A DNA stretch of 49,594 nucleotides from Candidatus Gastranaerophilales bacterium (lineage in GTDB: Bacteria; Cyanobacteriota; Vampirovibrionia; Gastranaerophilales; Gastranaerophilaceae). The notes below the pieces were generated by a model. It saw nothing but the letters and a program-made list of their open reading frames with translations. It made no database searches and was not told where the DNA came from. Position 1 is the first letter of the stretch, and each line of letters starts with the position of its first letter. Positions 418-42,463 of the stretch are shown here, piece after piece. Where the stretch lies: assembly GCA_944323705.1 (NCBI GenBank), contig CALUTM010000008.1:1-49594 (forward strand), given 5' to 3'. Position numbers and translations under genes: made by a program.

Positions 418-2952
418 CTAATCTTTTATTTTTAATACTGCCAAAATATCGCTATCGATACTTTCGCAATCACTTCCGTTTAGTTTATTTTCCGCATTAT
501 CATCTTCAGGAATTTTATCTACCCAAGCTACCAGCCTATCATAAGCCGAACCATCGTCTAAGCCATTTAACTTACAATATTCTATTACTAATTGTACAAT
601 TCTTTTGATAGCCTTATGTTTACTTGATTTAAAGTCATATTCTTCTATAATTTGTTCACAAATTGTGTCTGTTCCACATCCTTCCTCTTCTGTGTAATCT
701 TCAATAAAATCTTTGATATTATATACATTAACATAATCAAACAGTATTCCGGCGGCTCTTGTTTCTTCTTCGCCGTTAGTACGTCCCATTAAATCTTCTG
801 CGAACTGCTTTCCGAGGGTCTTCTTATTTCCGGTAGACCAATTTTCAGAGCTGCTAAGAGCTTCAATGTGTTTATCAAGCATATCCTTTGTGATTACTGT
901 ACCTTTAGGAAGTTTTACAATTTTAATAGTTCTTTTACCTTCCTCGGTTGTTACGATAGATTTCAATTTACATTCGGCTGCTAGTACAATTTCACCCTTG
1001 TTGTTTATTTCCATTGTTACATCCTTGCTAGGCAATGTGTAAATACCATTGTCAGCAACTTGACAAGAATAAGTCTCGTCTAATAATTTTACGCTTGCTT
1101 TTTTTGCTTCATTATGTTTTTTTGCTTCAACATTTTCTGCGGAAGGAAATTCATAGCTGCCGTCCAACTCTGTTACATCATCGCTTGTGAGTACACTCAG
1201 ATGTTTTGAACTTCCGTCAGCAAATTTAACATTGCCGTCATTTGATACCGTACCGTTTATTTTAACGAGTTCATTATCCTTTATCATATAGTATTCTTTT
1301 TTACCGTCAGCATTGTTATGTTTTGAGGTATAAACAGTTATACCCTTTGATTTTGCGGCGGACAAATCACTGTACTTAGCAATCTTTCCGTCTTTAATCA
1401 ATTTATCGACTTCAGCGAATGCTTTGTTATAATTTTGAATATCTTCTGCGGTAATGTTTATTTTTTCTACATCAGCAAGTTTCTTTGTAGAACCGTCAAG
1501 CATTGTGCAATTTCCGTCTTTGTCTATTGCTTTTACGTCTTTCAGTTCTACAAGGTTTTCACCGTTTGCCATATAGAAATGTTTTTCTGCGTTATTTGAA
1601 GTTGTTTTTGTTTTAAATACATTTTCATTTGCAGATTTTTCCAAAACAGCCGCATCAACTAAAGCTTCAAGCTTTTCTTCGGGTGTTTCGCATTCACCGT
1701 CAATATCATGAGAAGGTGTTTCTACCTCTTCTTCAGGAATATTATCGGTTTCTACACCGTCAAGATTAATTCCTTCCGCTTCAAGATCTTTCTTTGTTTC
1801 TTTAACAATCAAATTGTCATCAACAAAATCTTTGTCAGTAGAAGAAATGTTGTTGAGGAAGCTGTATTTTGACTTAGCTTCGTTTCTAACCATTTCAGCC
1901 TGCATTAATCTGACGATTGCATAAAGTGTTTCAAATTTATCTGCAACAGCGTTTACGTTATCTTTTGTAAATTTATCGTAATCTGCATTGTCTTTACCTA
2001 AACCTGCAACAGCTTTTTCCAAATTCTGCATAGCTTCTCTCAAATTTTCGCAATCAGAATCAATCTCGGATTCCATTTCAGCTGCTTTGCTTATCAAACT
2101 GCTTGCGAGATTTCTTACAATCTGCCTGTCTACTTCTTTTTCAGCATCGTCGGAATGTATATGGTTTGCACACATACGCAAAATACTTCTGTTTTCGCCT
2201 TCTGTATGTGAATCATTCCAAATGCTTATTACTTGTATTATTTCGTCTTGATTAACTCCTGCACCATAAGTTGCAGCAAGAGTATCCCACTTACCCGCAG
2301 CTAATTCCGTAGATATTTTAGAGAGGTTAGTGCGGATTGTTTTGGTTTCATCGCTGTCATTTTTCTTTGATTTGCTGAATTTGTAACCTGAATTTTCAAG
2401 AGCTTCTTTATATTCGGGAAGTTCTAATAAAGCTTTTTCAAGCTTCTTAGAATTAAGAGTCTTATAGGCTTCCTTCAATGCAAGAAGTTTTTCATCAGAA
2501 GTACCTGTTTTACCCAAAGCATCCTTTATTGCTTGAGTTTCACCGTACATATCTTTGTATTTATTAATCAAAGCTTTTAAAGCATCGTATTCGAGGTTGT
2601 CGGAAGATGTGCTGCTGTTTCCGCCGTTATTTCTCCACGGATTAAAATTACCCCATGGGTTGTTCCACATATTGCCCCAGTTGAATCCGCCGTTATTTCC
2701 GCCCCAATTCATCCAATTACCATTATTAAAAGACTGTATAGTCTGTTGGATGGCTAACATAGGATTGAGTAAATTATTACCCCAGGTGACAAATTCAGGA
2801 AATTCATAACAAGCCGTATTAATTGACGGAGTCATAAATAGCATACTTTTTGTTCTATTTTTTTGAAGCTGTTGATTCCAAAGAAGATTTATTGAATCAG
2901 ACGGCCATTGACTTGTCATTGCATGATTTATTCCTGAATAATAAAATGTCAT
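418..2952 (-). CDS. Large cytoplasmic-type protein of unknown function, internally duplicated
   Basis: 844 aa, not recognised. There is no signal peptide or membrane segment. Residues about 78-115 are extremely Asn/Trp/Gly-rich (repeated NWG, NNGG, WGNM). Residues 120-400 are charged and probably helical; 400-425 are acidic. Two copies of a ~50-residue unit lie at about 448-497 and 541-590, both reading roughly K-x-x-(Y)-YM-x-(N)-x-E-LV-x-(I/L) ... DG-(N)-x-x-DGS-x-K-L. An acidic C-terminal region follows from about 740. The start ATG has AGAGGA about 12 nt upstream; a second Met at residue 12 is possible. It is transcribed alone, divergent from the RHH gene. A structural or secreted-effector role is possible but not shown. 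Confidence 0.75.
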   Translation of the reverse strand: MTFYYSGINHAMTSQWPSDSINLLWNQQLQKNRTKSMLFMTPSINTACYEFPEFVTWGNNLLNPMLAIQQTIQSFNNGNWMNWGGNNGGFNWGNMWNNPWGNFNPWRNNGGNSSTSSDNLEYDALKALINKYKDMYGETQAIKDALGKTGTSDEKLLALKEAYKTLNSKKLEKALLELPEYKEALENSGYKFSKSKKNDSDETKTIRTNLSKISTELAAGKWDTLAATYGAGVNQDEIIQVISIWNDSHTEGENRSILRMCANHIHSDDAEKEVDRQIVRNLASSLISKAAEMESEIDSDCENLREAMQNLEKAVAGLGKDNADYDKFTKDNVNAVADKFETLYAIVRLMQAEMVRNEAKSKYSFLNNISSTDKDFVDDNLIVKETKKDLEAEGINLDGVETDNIPEEEVETPSHDIDGECETPEEKLEALVDAAVLEKSANENVFKTKTTSNNAEKHFYMANGENLVELKDVKAIDKDGNCTMLDGSTKKLADVEKINITAEDIQNYNKAFAEVDKLIKDGKIAKYSDLSAAKSKGITVYTSKHNNADGKKEYYMIKDNELVKINGTVSNDGNVKFADGSSKHLSVLTSDDVTELDGSYEFPSAENVEAKKHNEAKKASVKLLDETYSCQVADNGIYTLPSKDVTMEINNKGEIVLAAECKLKSIVTTEEGKRTIKIVKLPKGTVITKDMLDKHIEALSSSENWSTGNKKTLGKQFAEDLMGRTNGEEETRAAGILFDYVNVYNIKDFIEDYTEEEGCGTDTICEQIIEEYDFKSSKHKAIKRIVQLVIEYCKLNGLDDGSAYDRLVAWVDKIPEDDNAENKLNGSDCESIDSDILAVLKIKD

Positions 2953-20144: not shown

Positions 20145-20468
20145 ATTTATTATTATCTTTCGGAGCCTCTATTTTAAATATCACAGGACGCAGTCCGTCA
20201 TTACAGGAACATATAGCGACGCCGGGTTTTCTTATCCAATCACCATAATAAAAAAGTTCATCTTTACAACCTCCGTGAGCAAGAGTAAAAACATACTGAT
20301 AAATAGCTTTCCAGGCTTCGTTACAAAAACCTTGCGGACATTCCCAATCAGCATAAAATACTTGTCCCTCTTTTAGCATAGGACAGGCAGATAAACCTTC
20401 TATGCCGTATTCTTTTGCAAGCTCCTCGTCAAAGTTCCGTTTTAAAACAGTTATTTTGCATTTTTCAT
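20143..20468 (-). pseudogene. TIGR04076-family protein with a one-base frameshift at codon 3
   Basis: The open frame from 20379 gives 78 aa (EGQVFYADWECPQGFCNEAW and the C-terminal NDGLRPVIFKIE), matching the TIGR04076 family. Upstream, the same frame stays open and encodes KCKITVLKRNFDEELAKEYG, the usual family N-terminus, but has no start codon. An ATG at 20468, overlapping the hydrolase stop as ATGA, is one base out of frame. Adding one A to the A5 run (minus strand, 20461-20465) would give Met-Lys-Lys-Cys-Lys-Ile. So either a fresh frameshift, a sequencing or assembly error in a homopolymer, or slippage. Family function is unknown. Confidence 0.75.
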
Positions 20469-21118
20469 AAAAACCTGTTATGCTCCTTTTCCCATTCTAC
20501 CGAAGTAATTTTCCCGTGTCCCGGATAAATCATAGTTTCAGGGGGGAGGGTAAAAATTTTGTTTTCAATACTGTCAACGATTTGGTCAAAATTTCCGCCT
20601 TCAAGGTCACATCGTCCTACAGATTCCCGAAAAATAGTGTCCCCCGAGAAGAGCTTATTTTCGGCAAGGTAGCAAACGCCGCCCTGAGTATGCCCGGGTG
20701 TATGAATAACCTTAATTTCCATATTCCCGAGTTTAAGAATATCACCGTCATTTACATAAATATCGATTTTGGGTATTGTAATCGGCGGCATACCGAACAT
20801 TGATAAATACTGATTGGCTTTCTCCAACCAACCCAAATCAGCTTTGTGCATCACAACAAGCGGCTTTTCCTCTTGGTTGTTTTCACCGTCAGGAATGGTC
20901 AGAGAAGTTGTTAATCCGGGTCTTATTCCTGCAATGTGGTCAAAATGCCCGTGCGTAAGTAATATATATTTAAGCTTTGCTCCCTGTGATTCCAATTCCC
21001 GCCTTATATCATCATCCACTGCCGAACAATCAATCAGGGCAGCATCCTTAGACTGCTCATCAGTTATAAGGTAATTATTATTATCAATCGGCGGCTCAAT
21101 AAAAGTTTTTAAAATCAT
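20465..21118 (-). CDS. MBL-fold metallo-hydrolase (glyoxalase II-like)
   Basis: 217 aa. Zinc motif THGHFDHIAG, then HTPGHTQGGVCY, FSGDTIFRESVGRCD and the terminal YPGHGKIT give the full metallo-beta-lactamase ligand set. Closest in layout to short hydroxyacylglutathione-hydrolase-like enzymes (COG0491). The substrate is unknown; it lacks the long C-terminal glutathione domain of true GloB. The promoter is an extended -10 (TGT-TAAAAT, 21130-21125) exactly 6 nt before the ATG with no Shine-Dalgarno, so predicted leaderless. The stop overlaps the next gene by ATGA. Confidence 0.9.
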   Translation of the reverse strand: MILKTFIEPPIDNNNYLITDEQSKDAALIDCSAVDDDIRRELESQGAKLKYILLTHGHFDHIAGIRPGLTTSLTIPDGENNQEEKPLVVMHKADLGWLEKANQYLSMFGMPPITIPKIDIYVNDGDILKLGNMEIKVIHTPGHTQGGVCYLAENKLFSGDTIFRESVGRCDLEGGNFDQIVDSIENKIFTLPPETMIYPGHGKITSVEWEKEHNRFL

Positions 21119-21267: not shown

Positions 21268-24003
21268 TTATCCTACACAAGACAGGTTTCCGTTTTTCTT
21301 CTTTTCTTCAAATTTCGGAGAGAACCAACCTGCCTTATATCCGGCAAATCCGAGAGCTGCAACTCCAACTGCACTGCCTGCAATGATTGATGCCTTTTTA
21401 TGAGCCTTAAACCATTGCTTGATACTCTTAAATGTGTTTGTAGAAACTTCTGTACCAGTACTTGTACCTGTACCTGATTCTAGATTCAACTTTGATAAAT
21501 CTAATTTTAAAGCTTCGTCTTTTAATAAATTTTTACCTTTTACTTTAAAATGTAATTCTTCATATAATTTTTGAGTTGAGCTTCCATCTGGATTCATCCA
21601 ACCGTTTTCTTTCCAAGTCGTTTTCAAGTCAACATGATTCTTCCATAATTTTTCTGCGATGTCTGTGTTTCTATCTTTCATAGCTCTTTCCATACATTCT
21701 GCTATTTCATCTGATATGATTGAATCACGAAGTTTTTGTAGAGCTTTTTTATAATCTTCATGACCATGTAATTGTCTTTCAAATAAACTCTCGGGGATAT
21801 CAGCACCTATTTTTGACTTGTAATCTTTTTTAAGTTTTTTAGAAACATCTTCTTTTACCTTATTAAAAGCAGCTTGTTCATCTTTTGAGGCAATTTTTAA
21901 TGCATCTGCCTCAGGCATATAGTATTCATGTTTACCTTTATAACCATTTATATATTTTGCATGCTCGCTATCAGTAGGATCAAAAACCTTCTGATCCATG
22001 CCTTGAACTTTTGGCACAATAGGAATACAGCCTTTTTTCATTGCTTCCAAATCTGTTAATTCGCATGGTGCAAACCTAGAAGCCAGATTGGCATAATCAG
22101 CGGCTGCAGCAAAACTGCTTCCCGGAGTCCATCCATCAAGAAGTAAAATTCTTCCTCTAAACATTTCATCTTTATTTAAATCTGTTACAAGTTCAGTAAC
22201 TTCTTTTAGATTTTTCATATCGCCGCCAAATACGTAGATAGAATTTTTATCACCAGTTTTTTTGACATATTTTACAAATGCTTCTAAACCGGTATCCATC
22301 CCCTTTTGAAAATCTCCACGTCCCCAACTTGTAAACATAGCAACATCTTGTCCCTTTTCAAGCATATCAAGATATTTTTTATCAATTCCACCTAAAATTT
22401 TAAAGTTTCTACCAGTTCCTCCTGTAACTGCAGCAGAAAAGCCACTGCCAGCATCAAGCCATTTTTTATCTTTTTCACTAAAAAGCTGCGAACCGATAAA
22501 ATCATTATTTAATCTTTTAAGCAAACTAATTTTATTTTGCCTTTTAATTTCTCTTATATGTTTTAAATCGTACTTTTTATTTTCATCAAACGCTAAAAAT
22601 TTTGGAAGTGTAACTTCTTTTCCATCTTTTAACTTTATTTTGCAATCTTTTTGATAGTATTCTTGTAACCCGTCTGTTGTAAAACCAGATGCATTAGGAT
22701 CCATTAAAACATTAATAATACCGTCAAAGATATTTTTTTCGCCCAGTTCTTTCAACCTCTTATATAAAGCTGGTGATACAAGTTCATTTTCTGCAATACT
22801 TTTGAAATACTTATTTGACACAGTGGTAAAACGGGGTAAAAAACCTTTGTCTCCGTATGCAATAGAAAACATTACGGCATTTGTCTGTCCTCTGGCATCT
22901 AATATCTCTTTAGGAAGTAGAGATTTCAAAAATGCATCTTCTTTACCAAGTTTCAATGCTTCTGTATATTCTTTACTGTCAATAATTTTCTTTATTTCTC
23001 CAGGTTTTGCAAGTGCTACCACTGCATCTTTTGTACCTAAAGAATACATGTAGCCGTCACATAAGTTGTGACCAATTGAAGTCACGACCTTGTCTTGCCA
23101 ATATGGATTACCACTTGCATTTAATTCAGCTACGTAGTGTACTAAAGGCATTGCCTGACCATCATGACACATTATATATTTGGGATCGAATCCCATTTTT
23201 TCTTTTAAATACGGCAGCAATTCAGCAGTAGCCTTAGCTTCCTTCGGGTATGGCAATCCTTGCCAGCCAACAGATAAACTTTTAGCCAAACTGTCACCCG
23301 TTGCCGTTGAATAACTTCCATCGGCGTATGGTTTAGCCATACTTGCCGTAGCATCTACATATGTAAATGTAATGTCAATTTTATTAATCATATCATCTGT
23401 CCAGCGATTTTTACGCATCAAATTTTTCATTTTTTCATCTTTTTTGACTTTGTAAATACCGACCGGAACATCATTTTCTAAGCCCCAACTAATCTTAGAA
23501 GTCTTTACTTCATCTAATATAAATGCTTTTTTTGCGTGTTCATCTTGTTTTAAAAAATCAGCTAAATCTACATCTTTACCAATTGCTTCATTCGTTGCAA
23601 AAACAGAACCCTCATAGCTTTTAAAAGGGTGATCAGACGGCAAATTTGTTGGAATTCTTCTTAATGTAACACCATCTTGCTTAATACCTACTATTTCTTT
23701 TGTATTTGGATTAATATCCGGAACATATTTTACATCTTGATTATATAAAGGAATATTTTCAATTATTTTATCAAAACCCTCATGATTGAAAAAGAGGTCA
23801 TTTCCTACAGTGGCAACACCACCGCTCCCAAAACCCAGCATGTTAATTTCAGAGATTTGATGAAATAAATGTTTTGGATTCCCGCCTCTAAACGATATTA
23901 CGCTCATTCCATTCGGTATAGGGTCTGCATTTTTTACACGTACACCTCTGTTTTTTTCAACCCTTAAGGCAGAATAATCAGCACCAATTGCATTAATTTT
24001 CAT
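21268..24003 (-). CDS. Starch/glycogen-synthase-like glycosyltransferase with C-terminal membrane anchor
   Basis: 911 aa from the ATG at 24003, which has AAGGAG 9 nt upstream (an in-frame GTG at 24021 would put that site inside the gene). GT-B features resemble GT5 synthases: N-terminal GGNPKHLFHQISEINMLGFG, central YIMCHDGQAMPLVHY, TTVSNKYF, and SRFAPCELTDLEAMKKG with IPIVPKVQGM around 642-670 (cf. SRFEPCGL...YG..PIV...GG). Residues about 670-860 are an extra Lys-rich helical region. A Thr/Ser/Gly linker leads to a hydrophobic segment (ASIIAGSAVGVAALGFAGY, about 870-894) and a basic tail. Residues 37-43 (SFRGGNP) carry the N-terminal motif seen in nearby unknown proteins. Acceptor and product are unknown. 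Confidence 0.75.
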   Translation of the reverse strand: MKINAIGADYSALRVEKNRGVRVKNADPIPNGMSVISFRGGNPKHLFHQISEINMLGFGSGGVATVGNDLFFNHEGFDKIIENIPLYNQDVKYVPDINPNTKEIVGIKQDGVTLRRIPTNLPSDHPFKSYEGSVFATNEAIGKDVDLADFLKQDEHAKKAFILDEVKTSKISWGLENDVPVGIYKVKKDEKMKNLMRKNRWTDDMINKIDITFTYVDATASMAKPYADGSYSTATGDSLAKSLSVGWQGLPYPKEAKATAELLPYLKEKMGFDPKYIMCHDGQAMPLVHYVAELNASGNPYWQDKVVTSIGHNLCDGYMYSLGTKDAVVALAKPGEIKKIIDSKEYTEALKLGKEDAFLKSLLPKEILDARGQTNAVMFSIAYGDKGFLPRFTTVSNKYFKSIAENELVSPALYKRLKELGEKNIFDGIINVLMDPNASGFTTDGLQEYYQKDCKIKLKDGKEVTLPKFLAFDENKKYDLKHIREIKRQNKISLLKRLNNDFIGSQLFSEKDKKWLDAGSGFSAAVTGGTGRNFKILGGIDKKYLDMLEKGQDVAMFTSWGRGDFQKGMDTGLEAFVKYVKKTGDKNSIYVFGGDMKNLKEVTELVTDLNKDEMFRGRILLLDGWTPGSSFAAAADYANLASRFAPCELTDLEAMKKGCIPIVPKVQGMDQKVFDPTDSEHAKYINGYKGKHEYYMPEADALKIASKDEQAAFNKVKEDVSKKLKKDYKSKIGADIPESLFERQLHGHEDYKKALQKLRDSIISDEIAECMERAMKDRNTDIAEKLWKNHVDLKTTWKENGWMNPDGSSTQKLYEELHFKVKGKNLLKDEALKLDLSKLNLESGTGTSTGTEVSTNTFKSIKQWFKAHKKASIIAGSAVGVAALGFAGYKAGWFSPKFEEKKKNGNLSCVG

Positions 24004-24194
24004 AAACGACTCCTTACACACTATCTATATATATAAAAAACCACACACAAAAAAATTTAACTGAAAATCCCCATTTGTTAAGAAATATTAAGTAAATTTT
24101 TGTTAAGCAATTTCATAATATATATTACCAAAAGCAAAATTTTATTTCAATAGGTAAAAATAGGAAATTTTATTGCGAATTGTAAAGAACATGC

Positions 24195-24243: not shown

Positions 24244-24714
24244 ATGAACATATCACCAATCAATAGTTCTCCAAACTTTACAGGGTTATGGGGAGCCGAA
24301 AGAAAAGAACAAATTTTTAATGACAAAATGTATCTGACGTTGACAAGCAAGTCTTACTACCCTTTTAAAGCAGAACCTGCCGAGGAAATTGAAAAAATTA
24401 AGCAATGTCTTGAAAAAGAATGTGCTTTGGTTACACACGAAATAGACGGCACTACAGTACAAAGCGAGATAGAATTCCGGGTACATAAACCTCTTGAATT
24501 CTCAGAACAAGAGTTTGTAAATTATCAGAAAAGCAAAATCGGGGCAAAATCGCCGCAAGAGTTAACGCATCCCATTGAAAAACAACTTGTGGAAAGAAAA
24601 TTATTTGATTATTTAAACTTTTCGGATGAATACGTTAATGAATTGACGAAGCAGAAAAGCTTAAAATATAAGATGCAGACATTCTTTAACAAGTTTAGGG
24701 GGAGGGTTTTGTAA
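24244..24714 (+). CDS. Unknown protein with N-terminal NFTG motif
   Basis: 156 aa, not recognised. Starts MNISPINSSPNFTGLWG, a polar Ser/Asn-rich leader ending in NFTG, followed by a mixed alpha/beta body with a basic helical C-terminus (KQKSLKYKMQTFFNKFRGR). No signal peptide or membrane segment. AAGGAG before the ATG. First of a run of four small genes (to 26184), three of which share the leader style. Probably lineage-specific. Confidence 0.7.
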   Translation: MNISPINSSPNFTGLWGAERKEQIFNDKMYLTLTSKSYYPFKAEPAEEIEKIKQCLEKECALVTHEIDGTTVQSEIEFRVHKPLEFSEQEFVNYQKSKIGAKSPQELTHPIEKQLVERKLFDYLNFSDEYVNELTKQKSLKYKMQTFFNKFRGRVL

Positions 24715-24762: not shown

Positions 24763-25155
24763 ATGCAAGTATCGTCAATTAATAACCACTCAAATACAAA
24801 TTTTCAAGCTAATTTGCATATTACCAAAGAAGCAAAATCTTTTATGCATAATAGCCTTAATACTTCCAAATGGGACATTTTCAAGCTTGAATCCAAACTC
24901 TCAAATCGGTTGGCAAGTGAAACGCCTGCGGCAGACACTTGTGTAATCGATAAAATAAGTAAGAGTTTACAAGATAAACTTCCGCTAAGTCCATTCAACT
25001 ACGGAGGAGAAAAACCGCAGTTTGAAGTAAGAATTCAAGATAAAGTGACAGGGTTTTATCTTAATACGGAAAGATCAATATCACAAATTGTAGAGGATAT
25101 GTATAATGCGTACAAGCATGTGCGATATCTGAAACATTATGCACCTAATAAATAA
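24763..25155 (+). CDS. Unknown protein with N-terminal NFQA motif
   Basis: 130 aa, not recognised. Leader MQVSSINNHSNTNFQANLHI resembles the preceding protein's (Ser/Asn-rich then NF-x-G/A). The body has ITKEAKSFMHNSL and PQFEVRIQDKVTGFYL, then a C-terminal helix. AAAGGAATT upstream of the ATG; 48 bp after the previous gene, so probably the same transcript. No cysteine or metal pattern stands out. Confidence 0.7.
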   Translation: MQVSSINNHSNTNFQANLHITKEAKSFMHNSLNTSKWDIFKLESKLSNRLASETPAADTCVIDKISKSLQDKLPLSPFNYGGEKPQFEVRIQDKVTGFYLNTERSISQIVEDMYNAYKHVRYLKHYAPNK

Positions 25156-40771: not shown

Positions 40772-42463
40772 TTACTTGATATTTGAATATGTCCAAGCAT
40801 CAAATGTCGGCGTTTCAGAAATGTTTAATTCCTTTTTCTTTTCTCCTGCCGAACAATCATCGTGTGCGATGGGTTTATACAATCTGTTGTAATATTCGAT
40901 AACCATTCTGTCGGAATTGAAATAAGCTTCAGCTGTTCTGATAGCCTGTCTCATCATCCTTGCCCATTCCTGCTTGTTGTTATAATAAGTAGGAATAATC
41001 TGGTTTTCAATAATATCCATCATACATCTGTGGTCAGCCCAGTGTCTTTCTTCCCAAGGCATATCATCATCAAGTTCAGGATATTCAACAGTATAACCGT
41101 TAATGCCCGGGAATGTACCTTCAACTGTCCATCCGTCATACGTTGAAAGGTGGATTGCACCGTTAGCATTGGCAGACATACCTGAAGTTCCTGATGCTTC
41201 AAACGGTCTCAGAGGAGTATTTAACCAAACATCGGTACCTCTCTTGAGCATTCCTGACAATTGTAATTCATAGCCCGGTAATACAACAACATTCTTTAAT
41301 GAGTGAGAACGATTTAACAGTTTGTTAAACATCTCTTTACCCATAACGTCATCCGGGTGGAATTTACCTGCAAATATAATTTGAACTTTATTTTCATCCA
41401 AAAGCTTATTGATTCTGTCTTTATCCATCAAAATCAACCAAGCACGCTTGTAATCCGCGAACCTTCTTGCCCAGGTAATTGTCAATACATCCGGGTCAAA
41501 TCTTTTACCCGCTACGTTTGCAATATACTTGAACAATTTAACTTTCATTTCTCTCTTGGAAGCAAGAAGTTCGTCAAATGACTTATCACCGGTCATTCTC
41601 TTATCCTGCCAGTAGTGCAAGTTTACGGCATTAGTAATTGCTCTAATCGGGCATCTGCCGTCAACCCATTCCCACATTTTGTTAGCAACCAAACCGTGAA
41701 GTTGTGATACGGCATTGGCAATTCTTGACATTCTTAAAGCTGCAACGGTTAAAGAGAAGTTTTCACCGCCGAGTTGAATTGCACGTTCTCTTGTCGCACC
41801 TGCAAAGAAGCCGCCTTCAAGCAATGTGTCAACCCAGTGTACTTCGTTACCTGCCGCAACAGGTGTGTGAGTTGTAAATACGGTTTTCTTTCTTACTTCT
41901 TCCAAATTACCGTTGTATTGTCTCAATAATTCAAATGCTGCAGGAAGAGCATGACCTTCGTTCATGTGTACGACGTCAAAGTTATAACCTGCTGCCTGAA
42001 GTACTCTTATACCCGCAATACCGAGAATTGTTTCCTGAGCAATTCTGATTCTTTCGTTGCCGTCATACAGTTTGTGAGAAATACTCTTAGCCCAGTCGCT
42101 GTTGCCGTCGATATCAGTCGTCAGCAAGTATACAGGACAAGTGCCGAATAATTCGGGGTCTACTCTGTATGCTTTTACTTTTACTTTTTCACCAAAAGTG
42201 TCAACATCTACCGTAATTCCGGTGTCAACAAGAAAATCATAGTATTTTCTGATATAAGCTACTTCAACATTGCCTGAATGATCGATTCTTTGATCATAAT
42301 AACCATATGACCATAACATAGTTACACCAACCATCGGCATCTGTAAATAACCGGCAGACAACATGTGTGAACCTGCCAAAAATCCTAAACCACCTGAATA
42401 AGTTTTAAGTGATTGGTCCATTGCTATTTCCATAGAGAAATAGGCTACGTTTGGTAATGTCAT
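40772..42463 (-). CDS. Alpha-glucan phosphorylase-like protein (GT35-like), PLP lysine replaced
   Basis: 563 aa, of the short alpha-glucan phosphorylase type (TIGR02094-like). YFSMEIAMDQSLKTYSGGLG, YGYYDQRI, VVHMNEGHALPAAFELL, VFTTHTPVAAGNE, TWARRFADYKRAWL and NTPLRPFEASGTSGMS are present. In phosphorylases the last motif is EASGTSxMK with the Lys that holds PLP; here it is Ser430 (GMSANANGA). So the usual PLP-dependent phosphorolysis is doubtful and it may be a PLP-free glucosyltransferase or a non-catalytic glucan binder. AGAAGG upstream. It may act on the same glucan as the 21268 enzyme. Confidence 0.82.
   Translation of the reverse strand: MTLPNVAYFSMEIAMDQSLKTYSGGLGFLAGSHMLSAGYLQMPMVGVTMLWSYGYYDQRIDHSGNVEVAYIRKYYDFLVDTGITVDVDTFGEKVKVKAYRVDPELFGTCPVYLLTTDIDGNSDWAKSISHKLYDGNERIRIAQETILGIAGIRVLQAAGYNFDVVHMNEGHALPAAFELLRQYNGNLEEVRKKTVFTTHTPVAAGNEVHWVDTLLEGGFFAGATRERAIQLGGENFSLTVAALRMSRIANAVSQLHGLVANKMWEWVDGRCPIRAITNAVNLHYWQDKRMTGDKSFDELLASKREMKVKLFKYIANVAGKRFDPDVLTITWARRFADYKRAWLILMDKDRINKLLDENKVQIIFAGKFHPDDVMGKEMFNKLLNRSHSLKNVVVLPGYELQLSGMLKRGTDVWLNTPLRPFEASGTSGMSANANGAIHLSTYDGWTVEGTFPGINGYTVEYPELDDDMPWEERHWADHRCMMDIIENQIIPTYYNNKQEWARMMRQAIRTAEAYFNSDRMVIEYYNRLYKPIAHDDCSAGEKKKELNISETPTFDAWTYSNIK

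What the first reader, a model, noticed from the sequence alone, without database searches (positions are those of the whole stretch)
21268..24003. Membrane-anchored, highly extended starch-synthase-like enzyme
GT5-like landmarks are preserved but the protein is about twice the usual length (~480), with an extra C-terminal helical domain, a Thr/Ser/Gly linker and a terminal membrane segment. The usual start-of-fold Lys-x-Gly-Gly-Leu motif is replaced by a GFGSGG region, so donor binding may differ.
Basis: partly seen in the sequence, partly recalled or inferred. Interest (0 to 1): 0.5.

Follow-up and report, generated by a model that had tools for sequence, protein, structure and literature searches.

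The report
Giant membrane-anchored starch-synthase-like enzyme
A gut bacterium of the Gastranaerophilales group carries, besides an ordinary glycogen synthase, an oversized and probably membrane-tethered relative whose sugar-donor pocket has been rebuilt in two linked places, so it may build a different sugar product.

Summary
The ORF at 21268-24003 (minus strand) encodes 911 aa, 1.9 times the genome's own 480-aa GlgA. Profile comparison places it in the GT5 type of GT-B: hhalign 99.6%, E 5e-25 over 413 columns; PDB starch synthases to 7e-23. AlphaFold models were too poor to test the fold.

Two corrections. The extra length is spread over six places, and the 'extra helical domain' lies before the GT-B crossover helix. 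KxGGL keeps Gly-Gly and loses Lys and Leu, but a bigger donor-site change was missed: EPCG became APCE. By homology those residues hold donor-sugar O3 and O4. In 42 long rows they switch strictly together: 28 A..E, 13 E..G, none mixed, one degenerate. Most other mapped ligand residues are conserved (11 of 15); dN/dS against a close ortholog is 0.056.

Long relatives with an N-terminal leader and C-terminal hydrophobic segment were found in the phylum sample only in the window's own family. Best reading: a tail-anchored, retaining glycosyltransferase descended from glycogen synthase, with altered donor choice. New variant of a known kind; product unknown.

The parts
21268..24003 (-). long GT5-like gene, 911 aa plus stop
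24010..24015 (-). AAGGAG ribosome-binding site
   Evidence: sequence
23869..24003 (-). N-terminal leader, residues 1-45, begins MKINAI
23878..23898 (-). leader motif ISFRGGN, residues 36-42; F38 is among positions conserved in at least 90% of the 42 long rows
23815..23850 (-). residues 52-63: E52 (Glu9 of E. coli GlgA) to the GFGSGGV loop that replaces KxGGL
23164..23814 (-). acceptor-domain stretch, residues 64-280, with about 98 residues more than GlgA
23050..23163 (-). residues 281-318: D281, H312, N313, Y318 (Asp137, His161, Asn162, Tyr165 of E. coli GlgA)
21904..22362 (-). donor-binding Rossmann domain, residues 548-700
22303..22320 (-). RGDFQK, residues 562-567 (Arg300 and Lys305, phosphate site)
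22045..22080 (-). SRFAPCELTDLE, residues 642-653: paired change of Glu377 to Ala and Gly380 to Glu
21664..21915 (-). helical insertion, residues 697-780, before the crossover helix
21544..21651 (-). probable GT-B C-terminal crossover helix region, residues 785-820, with W797
21433..21480 (-). Ser/Thr/Gly-rich linker, residues 842-857
21334..21393 (-). hydrophobic segment, residues 871-890, basic flank upstream
21271..21321 (-). C-terminal tail ending GNLSCVG; [GQ][HNY]LS end in 15 of 15 genus-level rows, window included
20465..21118 (-). downstream metallo-beta-lactamase-fold hydrolase, same strand, kept near the gene in 12 of 15 genus-level loci

Best explanation
The gene encodes a retaining GT-B glycosyltransferase descended from GT5 glycogen/starch synthase. 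It is held by a C-terminal hydrophobic segment at the inner face of the cytoplasmic membrane, with the catalytic domains in the cytoplasm where nucleotide sugars are. Acceptor-side residues and the diphosphate-binding Arg and Lys are kept, so it should still transfer a sugar with retention onto a glycan. The donor-sugar pocket has been rebuilt: the Glu that holds O3 became Ala and the Gly whose backbone holds O4 became Glu, and Lys15 is gone. It therefore most likely takes a donor other than ADP-glucose, for example a C4-epimer or otherwise modified sugar, and makes a membrane-associated or envelope glycan, not storage glycogen, which the ordinary GlgA of the same genome can make. Shown: descent, residue changes, their pairing, conservation, relatives. 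Inferred: activity, anchoring and topology, donor, product.
For: Profile-profile match to GlgA, 99.6% over 413 columns, E 5e-25, and to PDB starch/glycogen synthases, nine distinct sequences at 7e-23 to 7e-14, with collinear weaker blocks. Of 15 published ligand positions that could be mapped, 11 are at least 80% conserved in 42 long rows, against 57 of 911 columns (p 2e-11; 11 of 21, p 5e-9, if the six unmapped ones count as failures). dN/dS against L038 is 0.056 overall and 0.021 in residues 46-700. The EPCG/APCE positions are strictly paired, 28 and 13 with none mixed, with at least two changes forced by well-supported branches. In a solved starch synthase a Glu carboxylate holds donor O3 and a Gly nitrogen three residues on holds O4 (PMC6086201, passages); that these are the same two positions is my inference from motif spacing and from the Glu377 and Gly380 roles in PMC6210743 and PMC7137382 (passages). 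The paralogue on contig 3 has a like swap (APFE) and overlaps a second galE-type gene, although the genome has a full GalE elsewhere. Canonical GlgA and GlgC are present. C-terminal hydrophobic peak of 1.4 or more in 34 of 42 rows.
Against: No activity data and no usable fold model (pLDDT 39.5 and 50.0). The hydrophobic segment of the window protein is weak (1.59), 4 of 12 canonical GlgA rows reach 1.54-1.74 inside the catalytic part, and positive charge also follows the segment in many relatives, so anchoring and topology are not proven. Glu377 is recalled to be essential in E. coli GlgA, so its loss could mean loss of activity. Tyr355, which stacks on adenine, is W or F in 39 of 42 rows. The galE link concerns a paralogue without a membrane segment; no epimerase was recognised beside the window gene (neighbours were compared by similarity, not all by family search). 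The conserved neighbour is an MBL-fold hydrolase and no glycan operon surrounds the gene.
Confidence: 0.5

Rival explanations
1. A catalytically dead relative that binds glucan or nucleotide sugar at the membrane and acts as scaffold or sensor.
For: Lys15, Glu377 and Gly380 are all changed. The contig 1 paralogue has lost still more (N..T in place of E..G), so decay may occur in the genome.
Against: Glu9, Asp137, His161, Arg300 and Lys305 equivalents are kept in 40 or 41 of 42 long rows, Asn162 in 42 and Asn246 in 35; dN/dS 0.021 in the core; wherever Glu377 is lost to Ala, a Glu stands three residues on.
Confidence: 0.22
2. A membrane-tethered glycogen synthase isoform that still uses ADP-glucose.
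For: Acceptor-side residues and phosphate site are kept; glgC and glgA are present in the genome; the relatives L024, L025, L026, L027, L028 and L030 keep EPCGL and Lys15.
Against: The donor O3/O4 contacts are replaced in the window protein and in 28 of 42 long rows, always as a pair; canonical GlgA over the cut-off is already present in 92 of 98 genomes of the order.
Confidence: 0.18
3. A secreted or surface-exposed protein: the leader and tail are sorting signals and the enzyme does not work in the cytoplasm.
For: Leader motif in 37 of 42 long rows and LS-type tail in 15 of 15 genus-level rows; similar leaders on unrelated proteins.
Against: No hydrophobic signal peptide at the N-terminus of the window protein (its highest peak outside the C-terminal part is 0.83); glycosyltransferases need cytoplasmic nucleotide sugars (established knowledge); leader enrichment across families is only modest (18 of 334 families against 23 of 791 internal segments).
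Confidence: 0.1

Closest known systems
GlgA, bacterial glycogen synthase (CAZy GT5, TIGR02095)
   Same: order of motifs; Glu9, GG, Asp137, His161-Asn162, Tyr165, Asn246, Arg300, Lys305, SR-x-x-PC-x-L
   Different: 911 aa against 480, six lengthened stretches, leader and C-terminal hydrophobic segment, KxGGL and EPCG altered, far below the family cut-off
[quoted passage not shown]
   Same: GT-B fold (for the window protein by homology only); GlgM shares the His, Asn, Arg and Lys donor residues with GlgA (PMC7137382, passages)
   Different: GlgM keeps the Glu (Glu289) and Gly (Gly292) that are replaced here
Plant and algal starch synthases, GBSS
   Same: best PDB sequence matches, 6gng at 7e-23
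   Different: donor loop EPCGL intact in the two GBSS alignments shown; their added domains are N-terminal or starch-binding (recalled)

Membership tests
GT5 glycogen/starch synthase (GlgA, TIGR02095) | score over curated family cut-off | tested here: not met
   44.5 bits against 328.45; Pfam Glyco_transf_5 13.9 against 22.7
GT5 glycogen/starch synthase (GlgA, TIGR02095) | near full-length homology with conserved motif order | tested here: met
   hhalign 99.6%, 413 columns; collinear blocks
GT5 glycogen/starch synthase (GlgA, TIGR02095) | KxGG(L/M) loop | tested here: not met
   GFGSGGV: GG kept, Lys and Leu lost
GT5 glycogen/starch synthase (GlgA, TIGR02095) | Arg300 and Lys305 phosphate site | tested here: met
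   R562 and K567, 41 of 42 long rows each
GT5 glycogen/starch synthase (GlgA, TIGR02095) | Glu377 and Gly380 donor-sugar site (EPCGL) | tested here: not met
   A645 and E648
GT5 glycogen/starch synthase (GlgA, TIGR02095) | acceptor-side Glu9, Asp137, Tyr165 | tested here: met
   E52, D281, Y318
GT5 glycogen/starch synthase (GlgA, TIGR02095) | ADP-glucose alpha-1,4-glucosyl transfer | not testable with these tools
   needs an enzyme assay
GT-B fold | two Rossmann domains and a crossover helix in a structure | tested here: inconclusive
   models of pLDDT 39.5 and 50.0; Foldseek found no match at E 0.001; the best weak hit was a phage chaperonin, with glycogen synthase and other GT-B chains among the next ones
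Tail-anchored membrane protein | single hydrophobic segment near the C-terminus, basic cytoplasmic flank | tested here: inconclusive
   segment from residue 871, peak 1.59, net charge +5 before and +3 after it; 34 of 42 long rows at 1.4 or more; hydropathy only, no topology predictor, and 4 of 12 GlgA rows also pass

The most novel reading that the evidence does not exclude
Gastranaerophilales have turned glycogen synthase into a family of giant membrane-tethered glycosyltransferases in which a two-residue donor-loop switch (EPCG to APCE) has flipped more than once to change the transferred sugar, giving a lineage-specific, non-glucose alpha-glycan on or at the membrane of gut bacteria.
Probability: 0.25. 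Interest if true: 0.65.

Novelty: new variant of a known kind. Interest (0 to 1): 0.42.

Why it matters
The protein falls below the curated cut-offs of the models it matches, so it would probably be left unnamed, yet relatives sit in at least 43 of 192 sampled genomes of the order, where a normal GlgA is the rule (92 of 98). A strictly paired two-residue change, which the tree puts at two or more events, in a well-studied loop of starch synthases gives a testable rule for donor choice in GT5-like enzymes. It also points to a possible undescribed envelope glycan in uncultured gut relatives of cyanobacteria.

Tried and rejected
Structure route: AlphaFold on all 911 residues with 5 sequences (pLDDT 39.5) and on residues 478-830 with 4 sequences (pLDDT 50.0) failed; Foldseek on the second gave no match at E 0.001. 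I used profile comparison instead.

Start-pattern search: MKINxI in the own genome gave 3 hits against 2 for the reversed control, so that exact start is not a genome-wide signal. Leader enrichment across families is modest: 9 of 330 against a shuffle mean of 3.9, maximum 12; 18 of 334 families against 23 of 791 internal segments. A plain FxG count showed no N-terminal excess, and an open trimer count did not single out the leader motif.

Virus origin: no relative confirmed in viral contigs. Context as a guide to function: an MBL hydrolase near the gene in the genus and a nucleoside transporter-like gene beside it in 4 of 24 loci, neither decisive. A search for the E377A mutant found nothing in the held library; its severe effect, and that PDB 3cop is this mutant, are recalled, though the alignment shows Ala at that place. 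No paper on this family was seen in the listings of searches.

My first conservation test used 16 positions, two of them my own additions (Asn162, Ser374), and left out seven published ones: 13 of 16, p 2.7e-14. I redid it with published positions only and report that.

Rows dropped: from the homologues found I left out five (two duplicates, three partial or truncated) before the 42-row set, which also holds eight rows loci; loci are the best matches only (30 per call). L084 and L003 were left out of the tree. The tree warns of long branches, notably the contig 3 paralogue, so the switch count is at least two, not surely three.

Full report
The gene. The reported interval is a single open frame on the minus strand, with ATG at 24003, an AAGGAG site upstream and a stop at 21268, 911 residues. 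Four close relatives come from named records: two are titled Candidatus Gastranaerophilales (L038, 90% identical; L041), two are 'uncultured bacterium' (L039, L040). The genome is 1.93 Mb in 87 contigs, 99% complete.

What it is. On its own the protein scores under the cut-off of the models it matches: Pfam Glyco_transf_5 13.9 bits (cut-off 22.7), Glyco_trans_1_4 18.1 (27), TIGR02095 glgA 44.5 (328). With relatives it is clearer: all 18 members of alignment A2 match TIGR02095 at E 0.001, 37 distinct PDB sequences match at E 0.001 or better (many are receptor fusions to one archaeal glycogen synthase), best granule-bound starch synthase 6gng at 7e-23 with weak collinear blocks in the acceptor domain and a strong donor block, and hhalign against 11 ordinary GlgA gives 99.6% over 413 columns. 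Structure prediction did not work, so GT-B rests on homology.

Where the extra length is. Between matched residues, window against own GlgA: before Glu9 51 against 8; Glu9-Asp137 229 against 131; Asp137-His161 31 against 30; His161-Asn246 119 against 84; Asn246-Arg300 131 against 54; Arg300-Glu377 83 against 76; Glu377 to the crossover-helix Trp 152 against 80; after it 114 against 16. The confident part of the models is helical, about residues 700-760, inside the insertion before the crossover helix.

Active site. E. coli numbering and roles are from PMC6210743 and PMC7137382 (passages) and PMC6086201 (passages). Glu9, Gly18, Asp137, His161, Tyr165, Asn246, Arg300, Lys305, Leu381 and Thr382 are kept as E52, G62, D281, H312, Y318, N431, R562, K567, L649 and T650, and N313 stands for Asn162. 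Lys15 is lost (G59), Leu19 is Val, Tyr355 is Trp (W625), Glu377 is A645 and Gly380 is E648. Across 42 long rows, window and two paralogues included, 28 read A..E, 13 E..G, 1 N..T and none is mixed; all 12 GlgA rows read E..G. Lys15 varies separately (K in 16 of 42). On a tree built without the loop columns, the A..E label needs three changes, two of them forced by starred branches. Of 15 published positions that could be mapped, 11 are at least 80% conserved against 57 of 911 columns. dN and dS against L038 are 0.049 and 0.866 overall, 0.015 and 0.732 in residues 46-700.

Ends. The leader mostly starts M[KRQ][IVL] and ends in a motif like [ILV][SA]F[KRTGS]G a few residues before the first strand; the motif was found in 37 of 42 long rows, and F38 is among the positions conserved at 90% or more. 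Near the C-terminus a hydrophobic segment follows basic residues: 34 of 42 rows reach 1.4 on the Kyte-Doolittle scale in the last 220 residues. The eight misses are L039, L040, L014, L015, L018 and L077 at 1.28-1.39, the paralogue L002 (0.76) and L078 (0.04); L003 passes only through a peak inside its catalytic region, and 4 of 12 GlgA rows reach 1.54-1.74, so the number alone does not prove a membrane segment. All 15 genus-level rows, window included, end in [GQ][HNY]LS plus a few residues.

Distribution. 43 of 192 genomes of the order have a match at E 1e-10, among them 12 genus members, own included, and no genus member appears among the listed misses (129 misses are not listed). With the profile, 53 of 292 genomes of the phylum match at 1e-20, all in the window's family. 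The DNA pattern for SRFAPCEL occurs in 17 of 386 genomes of the phylum, all in that family, in none of the 213 outside the order (my count of the listing); the reversed control gives 0. The pattern is exact, so members with SRTAPCEL, SRWAPCEL, SREAPCEL or SRGAPCEL are missed. Ordinary GlgA over the cut-off is in 92 of 98 genomes of the order; 57 of 98 (my count) have two or more glgA-type matches at 1e-10, split pieces and short GT4-like frames included, and many of the listed ones below the cut-off lie in frames of about 650-1150 aa (capped list). Other phyla were not searched.

Same genome. Besides GlgA (contig 35) there is an 869-aa relative on contig 3 with APFE in place of EPCG and no hydrophobic end, and a 610-aa, strongly altered one on contig 1. 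The contig 3 gene, read from its first ATG, overlaps by 31 bases a galE-type epimerase that just passes the GalE cut-off (267.5 against 262.3), bears a similar leader, and comes in addition to a full GalE on contig 12. This hints at a UDP-galactose-type donor for that paralogue and, by the shared swap, perhaps here.

Neighbourhood. Of 15 genus-level loci (L009-L019, L038-L041), an orthologue of the window's MBL-fold hydrolase (20465-21118) follows the gene directly on the same strand in 10 (L009, L010, L012, L014, L016-L019, L039, L040) and after one gene in 2 (L013 a small leader-bearing gene, L015 a GT2 gene); L011 lacks it within its short flank, and L038 and L041 end too soon. In the 18 loci from outside the genus and the two own-genome paralogue loci, the neighbours differ.

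Judgement. Descent from GT5, the altered donor loop and purifying selection are shown. That it is active, faces the cytoplasm, is truly anchored and uses another donor is inferred.

Noticed in passing
window 24244-24714, 24763-25155; L006 5765-6823; L136 11157-12167; L007 5863-7383; L048 242-544: Unrelated proteins, among them a GalE-type epimerase and a GT2 enzyme, start with a similar short leader (M-x-I ... [ST]F[KTQ][GAS] or close to it). Possibly a lineage-wide N-terminal tag; statistical excess is modest.
   Followed up: partly
L006 3186-5795 and 5765-6823 (contig 3): Second long GT5-like gene (869 aa, APFE) overlapping a second galE-type gene.
   Followed up: partly
L007 3783-5615 (contig 1): 610-aa GT5-like protein whose donor loop is strongly altered; maybe a dead relative.
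   Followed up: no
L118, L124, L125, L129: A gene of one family lies beside the long GT gene in 4 of 24 loci, three genera; the L118 copy is a Na+-dependent nucleoside transporter by Pfam, the others were not scanned.
   Followed up: partly
window 418-2952: 844-aa protein with an Asn/Gly/Trp-rich start and no family over a Pfam cut-off.
   Followed up: no
window 40772-42463: Glycogen phosphorylase-type protein (563 aa, Pfam Phosphorylase) in the same window as the GT5-like gene.
   Followed up: no
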